Origin: Margaritispora aquatica | Lineage: Eukaryota > Ascomycota > Leotiomycetes > Helotiales > Discinellaceae | DNA: 64,000 nt | Assembly: GCA_007644065.1 (NCBI GenBank) | Contig: VJWN01000029.1 | Location: 62,001-126,000, forward strand | Reading direction: 5' to 3' | Part shown: positions 8,022 through 35,214 of the stretch, one piece after another | How the letters are laid out: every line of letters begins with the position of its first letter | How positions within the stretch are numbered: the first letter of the stretch is position 1 | The notes under the pieces: generated by a model | What the model saw: only the letters and a program-made list of their open reading frames with translations | Told to the model about the DNA's origin: nothing | The model's database searches: none | Translations under genes and position numbers: made by a program

Positions 8022-9000
8022 TGTGAATGTGGTGGTTGATGTTTGTGATTATGGATCACGGATGATATGATGGCTGTGAGGTTATGGGTGGGTATATACA
8101 TGGTGAGGAGGGGCGTTATGTGGAACACAGGCATGATCGAGTATGATCAAGGTGGATGGGCGATGGAGTTTCGAGGTGTGCAAGCTATGTCTTGGGTAGG
8201 CAATTGGCTGCTTGGTTCGAAATCTGCCGTTTCTTTTCGCAATCATCTCTTTGTACAACAATGAAAACATTGCAACTCTACTCAGTTCACAATATCGCAT
8301 TCTTGCAACATGGACAATCAGTCAATTGAGGCAACTGCGGAAGAAAACAATGTTCTGTTCACTGAACTTCCAAATATAGGTTTCATTATTTAGATTCTGT
8401 GATTTAATCGCCACGAGTATCCGAAATTGTTGTAATTATCGAAAGCATTAGAGATTATGGGTTTGAGAATAGTCTCTTTTCAATCATCGCCCCATCTTAC
8501 TTGGAACTCCATCGATATCTTGACTGAATCTTAATATTGGTCTGATTTTATTGGTCCAATCAGTTGGATTAGTATGCTGAACGATCAGGAGTCGAGCTTG
8601 AGGTTCAGGCCTCGAAGCAATCACTAAACAGTACCAATCCATGAATAGCGACGTATGAAGTATCCTCCAGTGGAGTGTCTTAATCAATGATCAATTCCAA
8701 AAGTACATATCACATGGCAAGTCGTGAATCAAGGTGCGTATTTTTTCGTTCAAGAACTTTCTAGGTCTATCATCTATGGTGAAGTGACTTGAATGTTTTA
8801 TGGTTTGTGGTCTATAAGAAGCTCAAATTTTCGGAATCTGTCGTCATGCTCGTAGAAAGTATTTAATATACTCAAATAAGAGAACTTCAACCATCCAGCT
8901 ATCACCAAAGTATACTTGCTTCCAAAAGCTCAACGGCATCAATACACCCAAACCACGAGGCAAAAAAAAGATCATCGATACCCACCCACTCACCTACAAA
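8022..9000. other. Intergenic, no gene recognised
   Basis: About 980 bp of terminator and promoter sequence between the transcription factor and the first Met-Cys family gene. Overlapping short ORFs near 8022-8300 are shadows of the gene's 3' end. A purine/A-rich leader precedes the ATG at 9001. Confidence 0.55.
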
Positions 9001-9264
9001 ATGTGTAACTGGGTCCGCTACTTCTGCGCCAAAACAGGCTGCAACAAAGCTGTCCCGCCAGTCATGAAGATCTTGAGTTTCTGTCGCAACCCTCCCTCAA
9101 GCCAGGGATGCTGCGTAATGGGAGATCCGGGCTTCTACTGCACTGAAGAGTCTTCGTCGTATTGTGAGCCGTGTGCGGTGCAGGTAGCGAGAGAAGCTGC
9201 TGCGGCGGAGGCAGCGGCTAGAGCGAGAGCGGCGGAAAACCGTGAGAGAGCTATTGAGGGATGA
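9001..9264 (+). CDS. Met-Cys family protein, copy 1 (small, cysteine-rich)
   Basis: 87 residues in the unspliced reading. No known domain. It begins MCNW and has cysteines at 2, 9, 14, 28, 37, 38, 47, 55 and 58, ending in an YCEPC pair. Cys2, Cys9, Cys14, Cys55 and Cys58 line up exactly with the copy at 11691. No signal peptide, so a cytosolic or nuclear metal-binding role is possible (inference). After Cys58 comes an Ala/Arg/Glu helix. A possible alternative end: a 49-nt GT..AG intron at 9242-9290 keeps frame and adds exon 9291-9403, an Arg/Glu/Gln-rich tail, giving 117 residues. The putative intron lacks a clear branch site and pyrimidine tract, so I list the unspliced form. Confidence 0.65.
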   Translation: MCNWVRYFCAKTGCNKAVPPVMKILSFCRNPPSSQGCCVMGDPGFYCTEESSSYCEPCAVQVAREAAAAEAAARARAAENRERAIEG

Positions 9265-9403
9265 GGGATAGGGAGAAGGGTGGAAGAGAGGCAATGGAGG
9301 ATGGAGTGGTGGTGAGAGGGAGAGGCAGAGAGAGAGACAGCGTCAGCGAGAAAGGGAGGAGGAAAGAGTGCGTGAGCGTAGGAGGGAGAAGAATCGTCGT
9401 TGA

Positions 9404-10233
9404 TTCTTGGTGATAAGAGGGCTTTGTAAAAAAGAGAAAAAAGAATTTAGAGTGAGTGAGAGACGTTGCGGTGTGGTGTGGGGATTTGAATTCGAATTTG
9501 AATTTGGACATAGTCTTTTCTCAATTCCTCACGCGTGGATACAAATCTATGTTCCAAAAAAGGTAGAGATGGAGTGATCGCACCTCCGTCTTTCGTAAGA
9601 GCTAATGCCCATAAACCATTTATCTATGCCTTCTAAAAGTTTATCTCTGGTAAGGAGCTAGCTTCAAGTGAAAAGTCATGTGCTAGAGTCAGGTGAGTTC
9701 AGGGTGCATAATTTAGTCGAGAAACCAGTAGACTCATCCCTCACTTAACACAATCACATCAAACCATGGCTTAATAGTTCTCTGAGTTCTTAAACGTGCT
9801 GACTCTGAATTTAAACTGGACAAAAATTTGGTATTCTAGTATGCATGACTAAGTATGTAATCTTTGGAACTGGAAATTCTCGTCATGATCGTCGATATTA
9901 GGTTAAGGATGTTTGGTTGGAACTAATGTTCTTGATGTAGAATCACTATTGTATTAAGGACCATGAAACGTGAGAATGACCATGATGAGGTTGCAAACTT
10001 TGCGTGATTGTGATGTTCACCACTGTCTCTAATAAAACTGTCCTACGCTGGAACTCAAGTATTTTCAACCATGTTGAAGCAGTGCAAACACGCAGTCAAT
10101 GAAACATCACCAAGCTTGACTTAACGATCGCCTAAAGCTGCATACCAAAATTGAACGAGAAATTGATCCAGGAAGCAGAGTACCTTCAGCTTACCCCTCC
10201 CCAATCCATCGAACGCCATTCAAACTCAAAAAG
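9404..10233. other. Intergenic within the Met-Cys array
   Basis: About 830 bp, mostly AT-rich, with no ORF worth naming. It separates the first and second family copies; I see no obvious repeat shared with the other spacers. Confidence 0.5.
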
Positions 10234-10883
10234 ATGTGCCAATACACCAAAAATTGTTGCATAGCCCAGGAATACAATGTTATACCTCACGGTTACGAAC
10301 CATTCGAATCTCCTGAGCTCTGCGCAAAGTCGAAATACACAAGGAAGATTTGTAAAACAGAAGGAGAAGGACTTACACAAAGACCAAGACGTGGGGATTT
10401 TTGCCAGAAGCGTAAAAACAAAGCTATCATCACATGGGCGAAAGACCACAACACAATTCACGAGAGACGAGGCCGAGATGAAGACTTCTGGGGAAAGCGG
10501 AGGAGAAATTACTTGAAGCTCTTTGGGATGTGGAGTTCAAGCGTTTGCGTGGAGCAAAAGACTTACAAATGTTGATCGCAGACTTAGGAGCTCGATCTCA
10601 ACTCAATAAGCGAGACAAAAGTGGAGAGAGTAATCAACGCTTTGCTTATGATTCAAATCTAGGATCACGTAGTCCATCGACGGCCTCGACAAGACCTGGA
10701 TGCATGAAGCAAGGACACGGCTCGAGGTTCGAACATGGAAGAAGACCATCGGTACATTTTGCAGAATCTGAGAGGACTGGAAGACCTTACAGGAGTGAAC
10801 AGCAACCACGTCCACCAAATTTTACAAGAAAAGAGAAGGCAGGGAGAGCATATGAGGAACAAAATTTAGAAGGTAGATTCTAG
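10234..10883 (+). pseudogene. Met-Cys family protein, copy 2 (frameshifted)
   Basis: The first frame (10234-10575) begins MCQY and keeps Cys2, Cys8, Cys9, Cys30, Cys40 and Cys57; the position-14 cysteine is Tyr and the last is Arg. Near 10489-10498, just after DEDFWG, the family reading passes to another frame, open from about 10482 to 10883. There the next residues are EEKLLEALWD, matching the W-x-EAEQQ-x-DTLW block of copy 3. Supplying one base in GGGGAAAGCGG restores the match. After the shift the protein is basic and Ser/Arg/Pro-rich like copy 3. In frame 1 the protein would stop 25 codons later. It is either a decayed gene or a sequencing indel. No signal peptide. Confidence 0.65.
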
Positions 10884-11690
10884 ATCTATACCGAGGGTGT
10901 TATCTTCGATGTCAGTAGGAATAGTCTCTGAGTCGTCTCTGAGTCACCAATCTATAGGTAAAGAGCATAGGTATTCATACAAAGGTGGAGGCGACGCAGG
11001 AGATCTCTTATACAACAGCAGCGGTATAGTAGATGTTACGAGAAATCGACGGAAGGCGATGCAAAGGACTGGAAGTTTGCCGCGAACAAAAATACAATAA
11101 TGCTTATCAAATATTTCTCATATTTTGCTATTGAAATGCTATTGATTGACATATAATTTGAAATACTTACAATATTTTAGTTGACTAAACTGTAGATACA
11201 TGAGATATTTACAGGAAGGAATTTGTAATATGATTACCAGACATATGACTTTACAGTAATTCTTACTTAATGATACAATAGACCAACGTTTCTCATTCAC
11301 AATCCATTATTTTCTGTTGCCACTCATTGTTGGAAGTTATTCCTAAAATCAACAAGACATATGATTCATTTCCAGTGTTGTGATTCAAAGGGAGATTACC
11401 ATTGTGTGATTAGAACAGCTCGCTCATTCGTGCTAGGGCTTCATAAAAAGCGTGGTATCTTGCTTCTTAAATTATTTTTAAATATTGATCAACAACGCAA
11501 AAAAAAAACAACACTATCCAACAACATCTTAATCACCAAACCAACAAAGTTTAACAAGAACGATTCCCTATATCAAGTAAGTTTAAGAACGGTGGCAATT
11601 CATTTTTGCATCTCTTCCATTCCACTAAGGTCTATCCCTTGACTAAGAAATGCATCTAACCACTTACCAGCACCATCCACCAGAAGCAAG
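10884..11690. other. Intergenic within the Met-Cys array
   Basis: About 800 bp. A 67-codon ORF at 10897-11100 follows directly on the broken copy 2 and may be decayed C-terminal coding sequence, but no alignment proves it. The rest is AT-rich and holds the promoter of copy 3. Confidence 0.45.
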
Positions 11691-12458
11691 ATGTGCAACT
11701 ACAAGTTAAACTGCTGCGCAAAGGAAGGTTGCATAGAAGCTCCAAACAATGTCGATAGATTCGAAGGATTGAGATACTGTGATATCTATGAACGTACTAA
11801 TGAGCTCTGTTTTGCAAAAGATTGGCTGAACTCCAGGAAGTATCCAGGCTTCTGCAAAGCTTGTATACTCTCCGCCACGGCTAGGTGGGCAGTAGGCAAA
11901 GACCACCTGAAGAGAACCCTTGGCACAGAAAGATTTTGGGCAGAGGCAGAGCAGCAAGGAATTGACACGCTCTGGGAGGAGAGTCCTCATAAAGTAGACA
12001 GACAACAGCCATATAGGTATGGATCAGGTCCTCTACCTCCAACTCTCTCTCGGCCTCAAAGAGGCTATGGAAAGTTTGAGGATCATCCACAAAAAGATTA
12101 TGACTTCATGCAAAGCATGGGCCGTGGTTCGAGATCCGAGCCACCAAGAAGACTACCTGGACGATACGCGGCTCATCAGGAGCCAGAGATGCCTCGCTTG
12201 AGTCATAGACAACCATCACCAAGTTACTCTTCAAGATCTGGACATCCAGGGACGAGATATGGGCAGCGCTGTTCGGTAGACGATGATGAGCTCTCAGATA
12301 TCTCCGGTTATCCATCCACAACAGCGTCGTCACAGTACGGTAGAGGAACCAGAATGCAACCCAAGGACTCACGGCAATCGCAGTATGCGTCCTCAATTGG
12401 CAGTTCAGAGCGATATTCGAATTATGGGGATGGATATGGATATGATCTAGATTACTAG
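11691..12458 (+). CDS. Met-Cys family protein, copy 3 (intact, long form)
   Basis: 255 residues, single exon, no recognised domain. The N-terminal ~60 residues hold cysteines at 2, 8, 9, 14, 30, 40, 55 and 58 (MCNYKLNCCAKEGC, then YC, LC and FCKAC). After this comes a helical block with RFWAEAEQQGIDTLW. Then follows a long basic, Ser/Tyr/Arg/Pro/Gly-rich tail of low complexity ending YGYDLDY, probably disordered. Lack of a signal peptide or membrane span argues for an intracellular protein; eight clustered cysteines suggest zinc or another metal (inference). It is the best template for the array because both its cysteine head and its tail are in one frame. Function unknown. Confidence 0.75.
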   Translation: MCNYKLNCCAKEGCIEAPNNVDRFEGLRYCDIYERTNELCFAKDWLNSRKYPGFCKACILSATARWAVGKDHLKRTLGTERFWAEAEQQGIDTLWEESPHKVDRQQPYRYGSGPLPPTLSRPQRGYGKFEDHPQKDYDFMQSMGRGSRSEPPRRLPGRYAAHQEPEMPRLSHRQPSPSYSSRSGHPGTRYGQRCSVDDDELSDISGYPSTTASSQYGRGTRMQPKDSRQSQYASSIGSSERYSNYGDGYGYDLDY

Positions 12459-13225
12459 CTACTTGTGGGAGCGGATTAAATGCATGTCATGGGAGCGAGT
12501 AAGGAGGCTTGAGACATTGGGAATGCTGGGTATGGTTTGAGACGAATATTGAAATTGTATAGATGGATTGACGCGAGGAGAGGAGAAACATTTGCTTTTA
12601 GATGCGACTCGTGGTTTATCTATAGACAAAATATACTTTTTTGCTTTTCAAATATTTAATTTTGATCATGAGTGAGATTTTAGCGTAGACGCAGAATCTG
12701 GTGAATATATAGAATATAACTACATACCAATTGAGTAGCGGTACAATCTTTTTTACAGAGATCAAACTCCACGAAAAACGGTTTCAATACAACGCTGATG
12801 GACCTTTTAGATTTTGGATAGCCAAAACCACCCAAACATACTCAGTTCAGGATGAGGAATACTAGATTTATTCTTCCGTCAATGCAAAAGCTGGTATGAT
12901 CAGCGGAAAGAAAATATGGAAATGCTTCGCTTCATGATTCACTACTCTGTTTCATCTAAAATCTAAAATCAAATGTGATCTATTCGAGTGATTGTGTTGA
13001 TGTTCATGAATGAAAATTGGAATGATCATTGTCAATGGCGTTGCTATATAAGTTATTCGCGGTAATTCTTAGATTCTGAGAGGTCTATAAAGCTTAATCT
13101 TTTCAAGTTTAAGATTCTTGCGCTTCATATCTACAAGACAAAATAGGCAATACCAACACATTCAACAAAAATAGCACGAACCTAATCATTAAATCATCCA
13201 TCATTAAACCTAGAGATAAGAAACA
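12459..13225. other. Intergenic within the Met-Cys array
   Basis: About 770 bp, AT-rich, no credible ORF. It contains the 3' end of copy 3 and the promoter of copy 4. Confidence 0.5.
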
Positions 13226-13734
13226 ATGTGCTTGGAAGTGTTGTACCAATGCGCCAGGGAAAATTGCCTGCAGACTCCATACGGCTTCCCAACCTCGGAC
13301 TTTTCCTGGCGCTGCGCAGACAAGCACAATCGTGGCCAGAATGTCAATACGGAGAACCAACCTATGAGCGGAAGTCCACTACGCCCAGAAAGGTTTTCTG
13401 CGAGTTATGCATCAGCATGAACACAATAAGCAGAGGAGGAACGATTGAGGACACATCAACGCAGCGACACTTCCAGCAGCTCCACTACCCGAGTTATAGG
13501 AATATGACGGCTAAAGCCTTTCGAAAGCTAGATATGTCGAGAGATCGATATTTTGAAATGAACCATGCCGGCGTGGGAGATGAGCAGCAGAGTTCAAGAC
13601 CAAGATATGGGAGTGGTGGGCAACATCAAGAGGATGGTGGGAGGCGAGCGAGAAGAGTGTCTCGAGGACGTCAACCATTCCTTAGTAAGAATGATCCGCG
13701 CAGGATAGAAGGGGAAGCAAGGAGAGCAATGTAA
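13226..13734 (+). pseudogene. Met-Cys family protein, copy 4 (frameshifted)
   Basis: The first frame begins MCLEVLYQCAREN with cysteines at 2, 9, 14 and 30, as in copy 3, then runs out of homology at 13334-13337. The other frame (open to 13734) carries the continuation, including a VFCELC pair equivalent to FCKAC of copy 3. Supplying one base in CGTGGCCAG puts the next cysteine exactly at position 40, the family spacing. The tail is Arg/Gly/Gln-rich. The stop at 13732-13734 overlaps a perfect donor (GTAAGT at 13731). Splicing to the AG at 13809-13810 would add 43 codons, so the true 3' end is uncertain. Either a pseudogene or a sequence error. Confidence 0.6.
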
Positions 13735-14436
13735 GTATTCAGAGATGATGGGTATGGCTTTGGAGATATATAAGGCGCGGGCAAACGCGGGAAGAGAAAA
13801 GAACTAACAGGTTGAACGCTCGGATGGAGTTTGAGTTATGGTCGATCAATGCTTTAGGGCATATGTATTTTGGAATTCTAGTATATGGAAATGAAAACGA
13901 CTGTATAATGACGTTCTATTATGTTGTGAGCAATTACTATTGAGATGAACTTGTCGATTCATCAAGTAAAGCAGCTCACATAGCTATAATCAAGTGAAGT
14001 CAACACGAACATCATCAGCCTCTCCAGGTTCAGAGTTCTACAGAAGCATTTTATAGGTAATTTCAAGGGAACTATATTTGATCGTGTGAGTGAATACAGT
14101 CGTTTTGTGATTTCCAATTCTGCTCTCTGCTCAGGTTACTGAAGGTTGTATGAGAGACGAGATAAATATGACATACTCCGTATGCCACAAATCATTGAGC
14201 TTCCTTGGTCACAAACAGCATTTATATTGGAAGTAGAAGAGCGTTTCTGTAGCGATCCACTATGTGTATACTCAAGAATGCTGTATTGTCTTTCTTTTCT
14301 TAATTCCAAGAGTAGGTTAACTATTAAAGCAGGCGAACTAATCAACACAAATATCGTCCTTCTAAGCCAACTAAATACGATCCAAATCTACCCTTACCCG
14401 TCCCCCCAAAACCACCAATTTAAAATCTCCACATCA
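13735..14436. other. Intergenic, convergent gene ends
   Basis: About 700 bp between the last Met-Cys copy (rightward) and a secreted protein gene (leftward). It may include a small second exon of copy 4 at 13811-13941. Nothing else recognised. Confidence 0.4.
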
Positions 14437-14909
14437 TCAATAATTATAGCATCGAATCGAGTTGATATTCTGCGCGTTGAAAAGGCAATTATACTCATAA
14501 TGCGCGGCCTGGTTGTACCCGCCGTACTGAATGGAAGTGTAATCACCAGCACAATTCTGGCTGTAGTACAGAAGACACACGCACCAACTGCCAGCATAGC
14601 AGTCAGAGATGAGCATGGAGTTTCCCCAGTTGTAATTGTAGCAGTTGTTGCCATCGCCGTCCATGGGCTGAGACCAGTAGTATTTGAGCTCGCCCTGGAT
14701 GGATCCTTGTGTTAGTTGCTAACTTTGTGCGTGTGGTAGAAAGGAGAGGAGAGGGAGAAGAGGGAGGTGGAATGGCTTACGTTGTAGTTATTGCAATAGT
14801 GATCGCTGTAATAGTTGATCTTGAGCTGCTGGCCGCTTGATAGCGTGGCTAGTGTGAGCCAGATTGTCACCATTCGTGAAGCGGCTGCCATAGTCTTGAA
14901 GAAACGCAT
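14437..14909 (-). CDS. Small secreted cysteine-rich protein (effector-like)
   Basis: Two exons, 14909-14781 and 14694-14437, joined in phase 0 across an 86-nt intron. The donor is GTAAGC, a branch-like CAACTAACA is present, and the acceptor is ATCCAG; the nearer ACAAG would break frame and lies only 4 nt past the branch site. 128 residues. Residues 1-26 form a signal peptide (hydrophobic core MVTIWLTLATL, Ala/Ser/Gly before QQ). The mature protein is small, Tyr/Asn-rich and has eight cysteines: HYC, NNC, SDC, WCVC, QNC, YNC and IRC. That even number suits four disulfides. No known family recognised. Size, secretion and cysteine content match fungal effector or antimicrobial-type proteins, which is inference only. 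Confidence 0.75.
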
Positions 14910-32197: not shown

Positions 32198-34048
32198 TCA
32201 GATTAAAGTGATCCAGTCTGGATATCCGAAAGCGGTCTTTAACGTCATGAATGGCTGTAGATAACAAGGACCAAGCAGTGTATACTCCTCTGGTCCTCCT
32301 CTTAAGATGAAAGGGACTACGCAGCCTTGAAAGATGCAGAGAGTTGCATTTGGGTGTTGTTCCAGCAGAACAGCCTTATCGAAAAAGCCAAATAACCCTG
32401 AAGAGGTTGCAAATGGGGCTCCGCCATGGAGGCGTGAAACCTCCAGTGTGCAGAACAAGTCGAGCAATGTGTCCAGGCGTTCCAAGTTCGTTTTATCCAG
32501 TGCACGACCTAGTAGAGCGGTGTATAGGAGTGCCTCAAGATTGTTGCCATCATCGTTACTTTCCTCATCCCATCCTTTTGAATGGAAGAGCGTTTGGCAC
32601 CAGACTCCCATCGCTGTAAATCCACAGTCCGTATCCTTTGCATGAGCGACCGCATCTCCGACTAAAGCCCGAATGCAGGTATAAGGGAAATTTTTATCTA
32701 GAGGCCGGAGAATGTCTCGTTCCCAATCCTCAAAGAGAGCCTTGGCAGATTGGCGGTCTCTGGCCTCCTTCTCTGCTGGCCGCCCAACATCCGTTACATG
32801 CCCGACTAGGTAGCCTTTTATCATGATAGACTTTTCATCGCAAGAGAAGAATATTTTCGCCCGCGTGTCATCAGGAAGTCGGAGTAAAGGCATCCTGGGG
32901 TCAAAGTAACGGGCCAAATTCCATAATCTGTTCCCCCGCCATGTTGGCACCCATGAGGGTACATCTAAAACCGTTTGATAATTTGCACCGTATAATATAC
33001 TAAGATCTTGGGTCGACTTTAGGAGGTAGACAGCAAGCCTCGTTAAAACCTCCTCCGGCTCCCTTTGATAGTCCACTGTCAGGCTCGTTTCTTGCTGCAT
33101 TTCCTCAGCTTGGCCAGCAAGGCCCAAGAGTGCGTATAAGTAATCCCGTTGATCGGTCGCCGCTTGACCGCTTGAAAGCAGGAGCAGACTAAGAAGGCGA
33201 TCTGGAAGAGGCGCGCGGGAAAAGTCCTGCCGGTATTCTACGTCCTGGAAATAACGTCGACAGAAAGTGACCGCTTTGAGGTGAATTTCGTACCATCGTT
33301 TCATTGCTGATATAAAATGCGGGGGATCCTTCATGTTTCCGATAGCCAAGAAGCCTTCTATCAGAATATCCCACGAGAACGTTATCTGGCCGCAGACGAA
33401 AGTAACCTCTCGGGCAACTGCAGCTTCCTGCAGCACCCAAACACGCGTGAACCACACGCTTTCCAGTAACTCGGCAATCTGCATATAGCAAGAAAAACCG
33501 TCATGGTGTAGTATTATGCTGTTGTAGGACATTTCATTTGCGCGGGAGAGCTCGACGGCTCTGTGAAGAAAGTTCCGAATCGAGTCCGGGGTAAGGTGAG
33601 GGTATGTCGAATCGGGCCATTCTCCAAGCCAAACTAAAGTACCTTGCGCATGCCTGTAGATATCGATCATCTGCCGGACTTGCTCGCTTCTCTCGGACAA
33701 ATCTCCCTGGTTGATACAAACGGCATCGACCCAAAGATGGCGATGTTGTTCTGGATGTCTCAATTGCCGCAAGCCAGCAGCGAGGTTTTCCGTGATGGCA
33801 AGAACACCTCCTGGTAGGTAAAGAGTCTCGGGAAACACATTAGCTCCCCAACAATAAGATAGCGCTTCATATGACGGTTTGTCAGACAGCTTTGCGGTGA
33901 AGAGCTCGCAATGGAGGGTAACTGGGTCTGACGAGGCTGGCGGCGATATGGTGAGGATTCTGATTTCGTCTTTGGGATCGATGGGTTGGTATTGATATAA
34001 AGCGCTGAGAGTTAGTACGCCATCGGTGGTGGTAGCTGGTGCAGCCAT
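32198..34048 (-). CDS. HET-domain protein (heterokaryon incompatibility type)
   Basis: 616 residues, one intact exon. I start at the ATG at 34048 (MAAPATTTDGV); an in-frame ATG at 34159 would add 37 residues that do not look conserved. The HET domain (~58-210) shows all hallmarks: YEALSYCWG (60-68), LWVDAVCINQ (~105-114), then the EQVRQM..IY helix, LVWLGE, and WFTRVWVLQE (~199-208). The long C-terminal region resembles the usual variable part of HET proteins. Such proteins trigger vegetative incompatibility and cell death when non-self partners meet, or act in immune-like signalling, in the cytosol. The gene lies entirely inside the TIR-bounded unit, with no frameshift or premature stop, unlike its AT-rich flanks. 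Confidence 0.92.
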   Translation of the reverse strand: MAAPATTTDGVLTLSALYQYQPIDPKDEIRILTISPPASSDPVTLHCELFTAKLSDKPSYEALSYCWGANVFPETLYLPGGVLAITENLAAGLRQLRHPEQHRHLWVDAVCINQGDLSERSEQVRQMIDIYRHAQGTLVWLGEWPDSTYPHLTPDSIRNFLHRAVELSRANEMSYNSIILHHDGFSCYMQIAELLESVWFTRVWVLQEAAVAREVTFVCGQITFSWDILIEGFLAIGNMKDPPHFISAMKRWYEIHLKAVTFCRRYFQDVEYRQDFSRAPLPDRLLSLLLLSSGQAATDQRDYLYALLGLAGQAEEMQQETSLTVDYQREPEEVLTRLAVYLLKSTQDLSILYGANYQTVLDVPSWVPTWRGNRLWNLARYFDPRMPLLRLPDDTRAKIFFSCDEKSIMIKGYLVGHVTDVGRPAEKEARDRQSAKALFEDWERDILRPLDKNFPYTCIRALVGDAVAHAKDTDCGFTAMGVWCQTLFHSKGWDEESNDDGNNLEALLYTALLGRALDKTNLERLDTLLDLFCTLEVSRLHGGAPFATSSGLFGFFDKAVLLEQHPNATLCIFQGCVVPFILRGGPEEYTLLGPCYLQPFMTLKTAFGYPDWITLI

Positions 34049-35214
34049 CGCTTGGGGTTTCGAGGTTAAGTGCTTGAGAAGGAAACTGAAGTGCAGGTGC
34101 CAGAGGATGCGAGATACTGTAAGTCGGAATGGAAGGACACATGCAGGTGTTACGAACATATGCCCACCACAAAGAACGTGTTAACGGACAACCAGAATAG
34201 CAAATTTTCTGAGATTTTCTTAAATATTCAGAAAGCCGGTACAGTTTGAGAAAGAATATCTCTAGTAAGTTAAAACTTTTTGAGTAGGCCAGCAGGCGGC
34301 AAGTTCGTCGGGAAGCCCCAAGTTTTTATTACAGTGTCCGCAAATCAGCCACTTATTTCAGCGCCGAAGAGACACAGTAACCTTAGTCGATAAAAGATGA
34401 TTTCTAACATAGAAGGGCCAAAGCTAACCAGTAAATCGCATGATGTAATGACCAAATGGTCTAAGTACTGTAGGCAGGTGATCTGGGTCGTTACCATATG
34501 AGAGAAGCTGTGGATCTGCCTAACATGCTAATTGTTTCCCAGGACTGGGTTAAAGCGGGCAAGATTGCAGCGATCGCCAGCCGATCTCACACTTAGCCTC
34601 TTTAATATCGCATCGTATGTTCGAGACTCTCCTGGTAGATCGCTCTCTATAAGAGCTCGACTAGTACGATTAGTTATAGTAACCTATCGATTGATAGATG
34701 AACGAGGGAATAGTAGAGGACGGGTACGACGACTTCTACTAGCCAACCAAAATAATTACGTAATATTCTATCGAAAGCTCTAGAAGATCGTTTCTACTTT
34801 TACCACTATTTTATAATTTACCGATATATAGTAAAATATTAAGGAATACCGTATATACGAGTAGCGTAACTAAAACTATCCTATTAGCTAAGCTATAAAC
34901 TCGCTAATTTACTTAGCGTACTTCTTACCCCTCTCCCTTCTATCCGGATAAACTCGGCGACCCGATTCTCTTGTGCTTTGTGTCTTGACACTTGGGGAAT
35001 ATATTCTTCTTGGGATTAAGTTTCTTGCTAGAGCGCCGAATGCTAATGCGACTTCCCGACGTCGTCGACGGTACGACCTATTGGCTTGCTACAACGTAAC
35101 ATTTTACCACTATAAATCGAATACTGATTGAGAATTGGTTATAGAATATAATAAGATTAATTACAATAATATATCTTAAAGGTAGCCCGAGTACAGACTT
35201 TCACCTTTTTTTTT
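34049..35214. other. Right arm of the TIR unit
   Basis: Promoter side of the HET gene, then from about 34600 a TpA-rich stretch with no credible gene. The ORF at 34532-34783 is Arg/Leu-rich without recognisable similarity. Confidence 0.5.

What the first reader, a model, noticed from the sequence alone, without database searches (positions are those of the whole stretch)
9001..13941. Array of four paralogues of an unnamed Met-Cys family with a fixed N-terminal cysteine grid
Four same-strand genes in 5 kb start Met-Cys and share cysteine positions: 2, 8/9, 14, 30, 40 and a final C-x2-C around 55-62. Spacing is exact at 30 and 40 in copies 2, 3 and (after one base) 4. Sequence between cysteines has diverged almost completely and the tails differ in length and composition. 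There is no signal peptide. This is rapid diversification around a putative metal-binding or disulfide head, and I know no named family with this grid.
Basis: partly seen in the sequence, partly recalled or inferred. Interest (0 to 1): 0.8.

Follow-up and report, generated by a model that had tools for sequence, protein, structure and literature searches.

The report
Decaying orphan array of cysteine-headed genes
A fungal genome carries four neighbouring, very diverged copies of a gene for which no relative was found in the searches made, each starting with a similar pattern of cysteines that may hold metal; two copies look broken, so this is a fast-turning-over orphan family rather than a new kind of system.

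Summary
Four plus-strand ORFs start Met-Cys at 9001, 10234, 11691 and 13226. Copy 3 (255 aa, intact) is the hub: its head matches copies 1, 2 and 4 better (scores 53, 79, 46) than any of 61 other Met-Cys ORFs in 314 kb (best 35). Copies 2 and 3 are firm paralogues; 1 and 4 are probable. The grid is less uniform than stated: copy 1 has 28 and 37/38, not 30/40; copy 2 lacks C14 and one cysteine of C-x2-C; copy 4 has C40 and C-x2-C only in another frame. Copies 2 and 4 are frame-broken without consensus intron signals at the breaks, so decay accompanies divergence. No Pfam, PDB or viral-contig relative was found, none among 5.8 billion proteins for copies 1 and 3, and none elsewhere in the own genome at that tool's sensitivity. 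AlphaFold gave no usable model. Best reading: a lineage-restricted tandem family of non-secreted proteins with an eight-cysteine, possibly zinc-binding head and a disordered tail, one member clearly intact, the array partly decaying. A Met-Cys protein of similar architecture, not demonstrably related, lies elsewhere in the genome. Function and expression are untested.

The parts
9001..9264 (+). Copy 1: 87-aa ORF, Cys at 2, 9, 14, 28, 37, 38, 47, 55, 58, then an Ala/Glu/Arg-rich stretch
   Evidence: matches copy 3 (score 53; 1 of 2000 shuffles as high; best of 61 controls against copy 3 is 35). Another frame downstream, about 9310-9400, is Arg/Glu-rich and open, so the true 3' end is uncertain.
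10234..10575 (+). Copy 2, first frame: Cys at 2, 8, 9, 30, 40, 57 in the head; similarity to copy 3 ends near 10500
   Evidence: the one own-genome match of copy 3 outside itself (E 0.0076; reverse search E 0.021).
10503..10883 (+). Copy 2, second frame: open stretch that by eye takes up where the first frame's similarity to copy 3 ends; marks the frame break
   Evidence: local similarity of this piece to part of the copy 3 tail, 3 of 1000 shuffles as high (both are rich in Gly, Arg, Ser, Pro, so this is weak); no match to the 5' splice or branch patterns tried in 10234-10900.
11691..12458 (+). Copy 3: the intact 255-aa member; Cys at 2, 8, 9, 14, 30, 40, 55, 58 and a 195-residue tail rich in disorder-promoting residues
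   Evidence: ORF longer than the longest in any of 300 shuffles of the region (maximum 195 aa).
13226..13420 (+). Copy 4, first frame: Cys at 2, 9, 14, 30; what follows the fourth cysteine is probably out of frame
   Evidence: match of its first 39 residues to copy 3 scores 46, 3 of 2000 shuffles as high.
13330..13734 (+). Copy 4, second frame: holds the cysteines corresponding to C40 (13342) and C-x2-C (13399, 13408) and a basic tail
   Evidence: as a whole no similarity to copy 3 above shuffles (449 of 1000).

Best explanation
This is a tandem array made by duplication of one lineage-restricted fungal gene. Shown: four same-strand Met-Cys ORFs within 5 kb, linked through copy 3 by in-frame protein similarity and cysteine position; copy 3 open over 255 codons; copies 2 and 4 interrupted by shifts of frame in this assembly. 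Inferred: the encoded protein stays in the cytosol or nucleus (no signal-peptide-like start), where its seven or eight thiols (2, 8/9, 14, about 30, about 40, 55, 58) fold round one or two zinc ions; a helical stretch follows C58 and then a disordered tail serves as a flexible, probably interaction-mediating arm. Duplication followed by fast divergence leaves the head as the last recognisable part, and copies that drop out of use lose frame and ligands (copy 2 lost C14 and one cysteine of C-x2-C). Copy 3, and perhaps the short copy 1, is the working gene.
For: Copy 3 against copies 1, 2, 4 scores 53, 79, 46, while the best of 61 control Met-Cys ORFs in 314,000 bases scores 35. Shuffles that reach the observed score: 0 of 2000 for copies 2-3, 1 of 2000 for 1-3, 3 of 2000 for 3-4. 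For all three pairs the stated in-frame reading is the best of 36 frame combinations (82, 56 and 46). In 83 aligned codons of copies 2 and 3, identity is 0.54, 0.52 and 0.40 at codon positions 1, 2 and 3, and 12 of 27 identical residues use different codons: conservation at the protein level. Copy 3's ORF exceeds the longest ORF of all 300 shuffles. All four starts have A at -3. The two copies without a frame break inside the head (1 and 3) keep every grid position, with shifts in copy 1; copy 2, whose frame is broken further on, does not. The frame breaks in 2 and 4 come with no match to the splice patterns tried at the breaks.
Against: Copies 1-2 (983 of 2000 shuffles as high) and 2-4 (472 of 2000) show no direct similarity; with cysteines fixed, 41 of 2000 shuffles reach the 3-4 score and 12 the 1-3 score. 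For copies 1-3 and 4-3 the second-best frame pairing is the same register shifted by one base (45 and 35), so cysteine codons carry part of the signal. Own-genome searches with copy 1 and with copy 4's two pieces find only themselves. In leave-one-out profile searches of 6544 ORFs, copy 3 is recovered (E 0.00032), copy 4 ranks first among non-model ORFs but at E 0.39, copy 1 is fourth at E 1.6, and copy 2 is not in the 12 rows listed. Codon usage does not separate these frames from other frames. No relative outside this locus was found, so selection cannot be measured. Zinc binding has no direct support: no PDB sequence match and a low-confidence model. The frame breaks could be assembly errors.
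Confidence: 0.5

Rival explanations
1. The array is a divergent outlier of a wider class of fungal Met-Cys-headed proteins, of which the 460-aa protein at L015:2198-3577 (own genome, contig C2) is another branch: Met-Cys, C-x-H, then C, C, C-x4-C and a long tail.
For: L015's protein has the same order of parts (Met-Cys, a run of cysteines within 60 residues, long tail) and one full-length relative, P0001, 30% identical; P0001 has an Ala/Glu/Arg-rich stretch right after its last head cysteine, as copy 1 has (by eye). I recall many unnamed Pezizomycotina proteins of this type; that rests on memory, not on a call.
Against: Profile-profile comparison of the two heads gives probability 0.2% over 5 columns; among 6544 ORFs neither profile finds the other's members, only its own at a significant E-value; spacings differ (2, 12, 22, 36, 49, 54 with His14 against 2, 9, 14, 30, 40, 55, 58). 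These profiles are shallow (4 and 2 sequences).
Confidence: 0.25
2. The whole array is relic: remnants of a gene family that no longer makes protein, copy 3 being open only because it decayed last.
For: Two of four copies have broken frames; copy 2 has lost grid cysteines; codon usage does not mark any copy's frame as coding; no relative outside the array was found to show maintenance.
Against: Copy 3 is open for 255 codons, longer than the longest ORF in any of 300 shuffles, and keeps all eight cysteines.
Confidence: 0.2
3. Disulfide-rich proteins that leave the cell by an unconventional route and act outside it.
For: Cysteine-rich, fast-diverging, lineage-restricted tandem genes are typical of secreted small cysteine-rich proteins (general knowledge); a separate small cysteine-rich gene with a hydrophobic start lies next door at 14437-14909.
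Against: No strongly hydrophobic start in any copy by a simple scale; Met-Cys with further head cysteines from residue 8 or 9 leaves no room for a leader.
Confidence: 0.08
4. Chance: unrelated ORFs that happen to start Met-Cys and to be cysteine-rich.
For: Two of six copy pairs show no similarity; a loose Met-Cys pattern at the DNA level occurs 5 times in the window with 1.26 expected, and 1 of 100 shuffles reached 5.
Against: Each of copy 3's three scores is above all 61 control ORFs; the only own-genome match of copy 3 outside itself is its neighbour copy 2.
Confidence: 0.05

Closest known systems
L015/P0001 type of Met-Cys-headed fungal protein (unnamed; own genome C2:132198-133577 and one public protein)
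   Same: Starts Met-Cys, cysteine-rich first 60 residues, no Pfam family, long tail
   Different: C-x-H at 12-14 and C-x4-C at the end of the head; other spacing; no significant profile match; tail conserved between L015 and P0001
Fungal Zn2Cys6 cluster (Pfam PF00172; spacing recalled)
   Same: Several cysteines near the N-terminus that could hold two zinc ions
   Different: No C-x2-C-x6-C pattern; no match to it at E 1
Small secreted cysteine-rich proteins of fungi
   Same: Short, cysteine-rich, no relatives found, fast diverging
   Different: No signal-peptide-like start (hydropathy only)
Metallothioneins (motifs recalled)
   Same: High cysteine content in a short head
   Different: No C-x-C repeats; cysteines spread over 58 residues among ordinary residues

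Membership tests
Single paralogous family (the array itself) | Head similarity to copy 3 above unrelated Met-Cys ORFs | tested here: met
   53, 79, 46 against a best of 35 in 61 controls
Single paralogous family (the array itself) | All pairs of copies mutually similar | tested here: not met
   Copies 1-2 and 2-4 no better than shuffles; 1-4 intermediate (31 of 2000). Divergent paralogues need not meet this; copy 3 links the others
Fixed grid 2, 8/9, 14, 30, 40, C-x2-C (as in the finding) | Every position present in every copy in frame | tested here: not met
   Copy 1 has 28 and 37/38; copy 2 lacks 14 and C-x2-C; copy 4 lacks 40 and C-x2-C in its first frame
L015/P0001 Met-Cys C-x-H type | Significant profile match of the heads | tested here: not met
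   hhalign probability 0.2%; neither hmmsearch finds the other's members significantly
Zn2Cys6 cluster | Pfam model match | tested here: not met
   Six pieces scanned at E 1: 0 families for four; one weak unrelated hit each for 13226-13417 and 10530-10880
Secreted small cysteine-rich protein | N-terminal signal peptide | tested here: not met
   Hydropathy only: highest 9-residue mean in the first 33 residues 1.49, 0.63, 0.28 and 1.16 for copies 1 to 4; no dedicated predictor was available
Zinc-binding domain | Metal bound by the cysteines | not testable with these tools
   AlphaFold model with mean pLDDT 48
Cys/Arg N-degron substrate | Met-Cys at the N-terminus | tested here: met
   All four copies as ORFs; removal of Met not tested
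Cys/Arg N-degron substrate | N-terminal cysteine dioxygenase (PCO_ADO) in the genome | tested here: inconclusive
   No match, but none of the 14 control genomes rang, so absence is not shown; an arginyltransferase match (ATE_C, two pieces) is present

The most novel reading that the evidence does not exclude
The fixed second-position cysteine is the functional point: after removal of the first methionine it is the N-terminal residue, and in these proteins it serves as a regulated N-degron or as a metal ligand through its amine and thiol, with the rest of the grid presenting it. The array would then be a set of rapidly replaced, redox- or metal-sensing short-lived proteins. My evidence does not exclude this; the genome has an arginyltransferase match but no detected N-terminal cysteine dioxygenase (inconclusive).
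Probability: 0.06. Interest if true: 0.75.

Novelty: new member of a known kind. Interest (0 to 1): 0.33.

Why it matters
Orphan genes are hard to study because there is often nothing to compare them with. Here four neighbouring copies at different stages of divergence and decay suggest what is kept longest, namely the spaced cysteines of the head. If zinc binding were shown, it would be a small head without a Pfam model. If not, it remains an ordinary case of lineage-restricted gene turnover.

Tried and rejected
Led nowhere: Pfam at E 1 on six pieces (two weak off-target hits, InvE_AD and HTH_92, both far below their cut-offs); protein search with copy 3 (143 candidates, none at E 10) and with copy 1 (31 candidates, none); the third and last protein search went to L015's protein (1 hit, P0001; only the 7995 candidates sharing most words were scored), so copies 2 and 4 were never searched there. 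PDB profile search found 0; viral contigs gave 1 pattern match, not confirmed. AlphaFold on the array (mean pLDDT 48) and on the L015/P0001 head (mean pLDDT 33) was too poor for a fold search, so none was run. Codon-usage scoring did not discriminate. The bacterial-type promoter scan is not informative in a fungus. Direct-repeat search of 8500-14100 gave six two-copy families of 21-30 nt at 72-81% identity and no inverted repeats: no sign of a recent duplication. RIP-type base ratios in the array are close to those of the whole window (TA/AT 0.59 to 0.89 in the copies against 0.73). An intron as cause of the frame breaks was considered and disfavoured: with one strict 5' splice pattern and one branch pattern, copy 2 had no match of either; copy 4 had one 5' match, well downstream of its break, and no branch match; copy 1's region had four 5' matches and no branch match. 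Looser or non-consensus introns are not excluded. A fifth array member was not found: own-genome matches were only copies 2 and 3 to each other. L028, a weak match of L015's head (E 0.04), shows transporter-like ORFs and none starting Met-Cys in the list; dropped.

Papers: eight searches, two of which listed nothing; the rest were seen as listings with the starts of abstracts, only part of the papers that matched (5 of 11; 8 of 191). No paper was opened. Nothing in those listings mentions this grid; this does not show that nothing is in print.
Full report
Setting. The window is part of contig C22 (bases 62001-126000 of 385,972) of an unnamed 42.4-Mb genome in 49 contigs. Neighbouring ORFs match Fungal_trans, Amino_oxidase, Hydrolase_6, HET, Peptidase_S10 and MFS_1, from which I infer a filamentous fungus; I could not name the species.

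Observation. Four plus-strand ORFs start Met-Cys at 9001, 10234, 11691 and 13226. Their cysteine positions coincide with those of copy 3 more than chance gives (P 0.0048, 0.00039 and 0.00051 for copies 1, 2 and 4). A loose DNA form of the pattern occurs five times in the window where 1.26 are expected; three of the five are array copies. In 314 kb (window plus 250 kb taken by place) there are 61 other Met-Cys ORFs of 39 aa or more; counting C8/9, C14 and a cysteine at 28-30, one of these has two of the three and none has all three.

Are they one family? Copy 3 is the hub. Its local alignment scores with copies 1, 2 and 4 are 53, 79 and 46; the best of 61 controls is 35. Against 2000 shuffles that keep Met-Cys, 1, 0 and 3 shuffles reach these scores; with all cysteines also kept in place, 12, 0 and 41 do. 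So copies 2 and 3 share more than cysteines, copy 1 probably does, and copy 4's extra similarity is marginal. Copies 1-2 and 2-4 show none, and 1-4 is intermediate (31 of 2000). For the three copy 3 pairs the best of 36 frame pairings is the stated frame; for copies 1 and 4 the runner-up (45, 35) is the same register shifted by one base. Leave-one-out profiles recover copy 3 clearly (E 0.00032), copy 4 and copy 1 only weakly (E 0.39 and 1.6), and do not list copy 2. I take paralogy as firm for 2-3 and probable for 1 and 4. No DNA repeat longer than 30 nt joins the copies, so the duplications are not recent.

Is it coding, and intact? Copy 3's 255-codon ORF is longer than the longest ORF in any of 300 shuffles of the region (maximum 195). 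Copies 2 and 3 differ most at third codon positions (identity 0.54, 0.52, 0.40). Codon usage alone does not help. Copy 2's similarity to copy 3 runs in one frame to about 10500, and a second open frame continues to 10883. Copy 4's first four cysteines lie in one frame and the cysteines that correspond to C40 and C-x2-C in another. The splice patterns tried do not match at either break. Copy 1 ends after 87 codons, but an Arg/Glu-rich open frame lies downstream in another frame, so its end is uncertain. Two of four copies therefore look broken in this assembly, and copy 2 has also lost C14 and one C-x2-C cysteine.

Relatives. None in Pfam, PDB sequences or viral contigs; none among 5.8 billion proteins for copy 3 or copy 1. 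Copies 2 and 4 were not searched there. In the own genome copy 3 and copy 2 find each other (E 0.0076 and 0.021) and nothing else; copies 1 and 4 and the second-frame pieces find only themselves. That tool scores only candidates of a loose first look, and it did not join copies 1 and 4 to copy 3 either, so distant members may be missed.

A possible wider class. In the stretches taken by place, L015:2198-3577 encodes a 460-aa Met-Cys protein with head cysteines at 2, 12, 22, 36, 49 and 54 and His14. It has one public relative among those scored, P0001, 30% identical over full length, and no Pfam family. Its architecture is like the array's. Profile comparison gives no support for common descent (probability 0.2%), though both profiles are shallow. 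So 'works like' is open and 'is a member of the same family' is not shown.

How it may work. With no strongly hydrophobic start the head most likely sits in a reducing compartment, where cysteines at such spacing more often hold zinc than form disulfides; this step is inference from general knowledge. Eight thiols in copy 3 could hold two zinc ions. The low-confidence model shows helices at 5-11, 27-42 and 54-89, not to be relied on. The tail is rich in disorder-promoting residues (0.67 over residues 61-255). I give the whole explanation 0.5, the paralogy part of it considerably more and the zinc part less.

Verdict. A real but modest finding: a lineage-restricted tandem array, partly decaying, around a cysteine head that no searched library names.

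Noticed in passing
L015:2198-3577 (own genome C2:132198-133577, + strand): Intact 460-aa Met-Cys protein with a C-x-H head; one public relative found (P0001, 30% over full length), no Pfam family.
   Followed up: partly
window 14437-14909, - strand: Probable two-exon gene (intron from about 14780 with GTAAGC, CTAAC and an AG) for a small cysteine-rich protein with a hydrophobic start; an exon 2 piece has no Pfam match.
   Followed up: partly
window about 9310-9400, + strand: Open Arg/Glu-rich frame just after copy 1's stop, in another frame; could be a lost tail or an unrecognised exon.
   Followed up: no
window 32201-34180, - strand: HET-domain (heterokaryon incompatibility) gene, 660-aa open frame.
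   Followed up: no
own genome C46:311659-312332, + strand: Arginyltransferase (ATE_C) match in two pieces, the larger read through four stop codons, perhaps an intron; no PCO_ADO match found, with an uninformative control.
   Followed up: no
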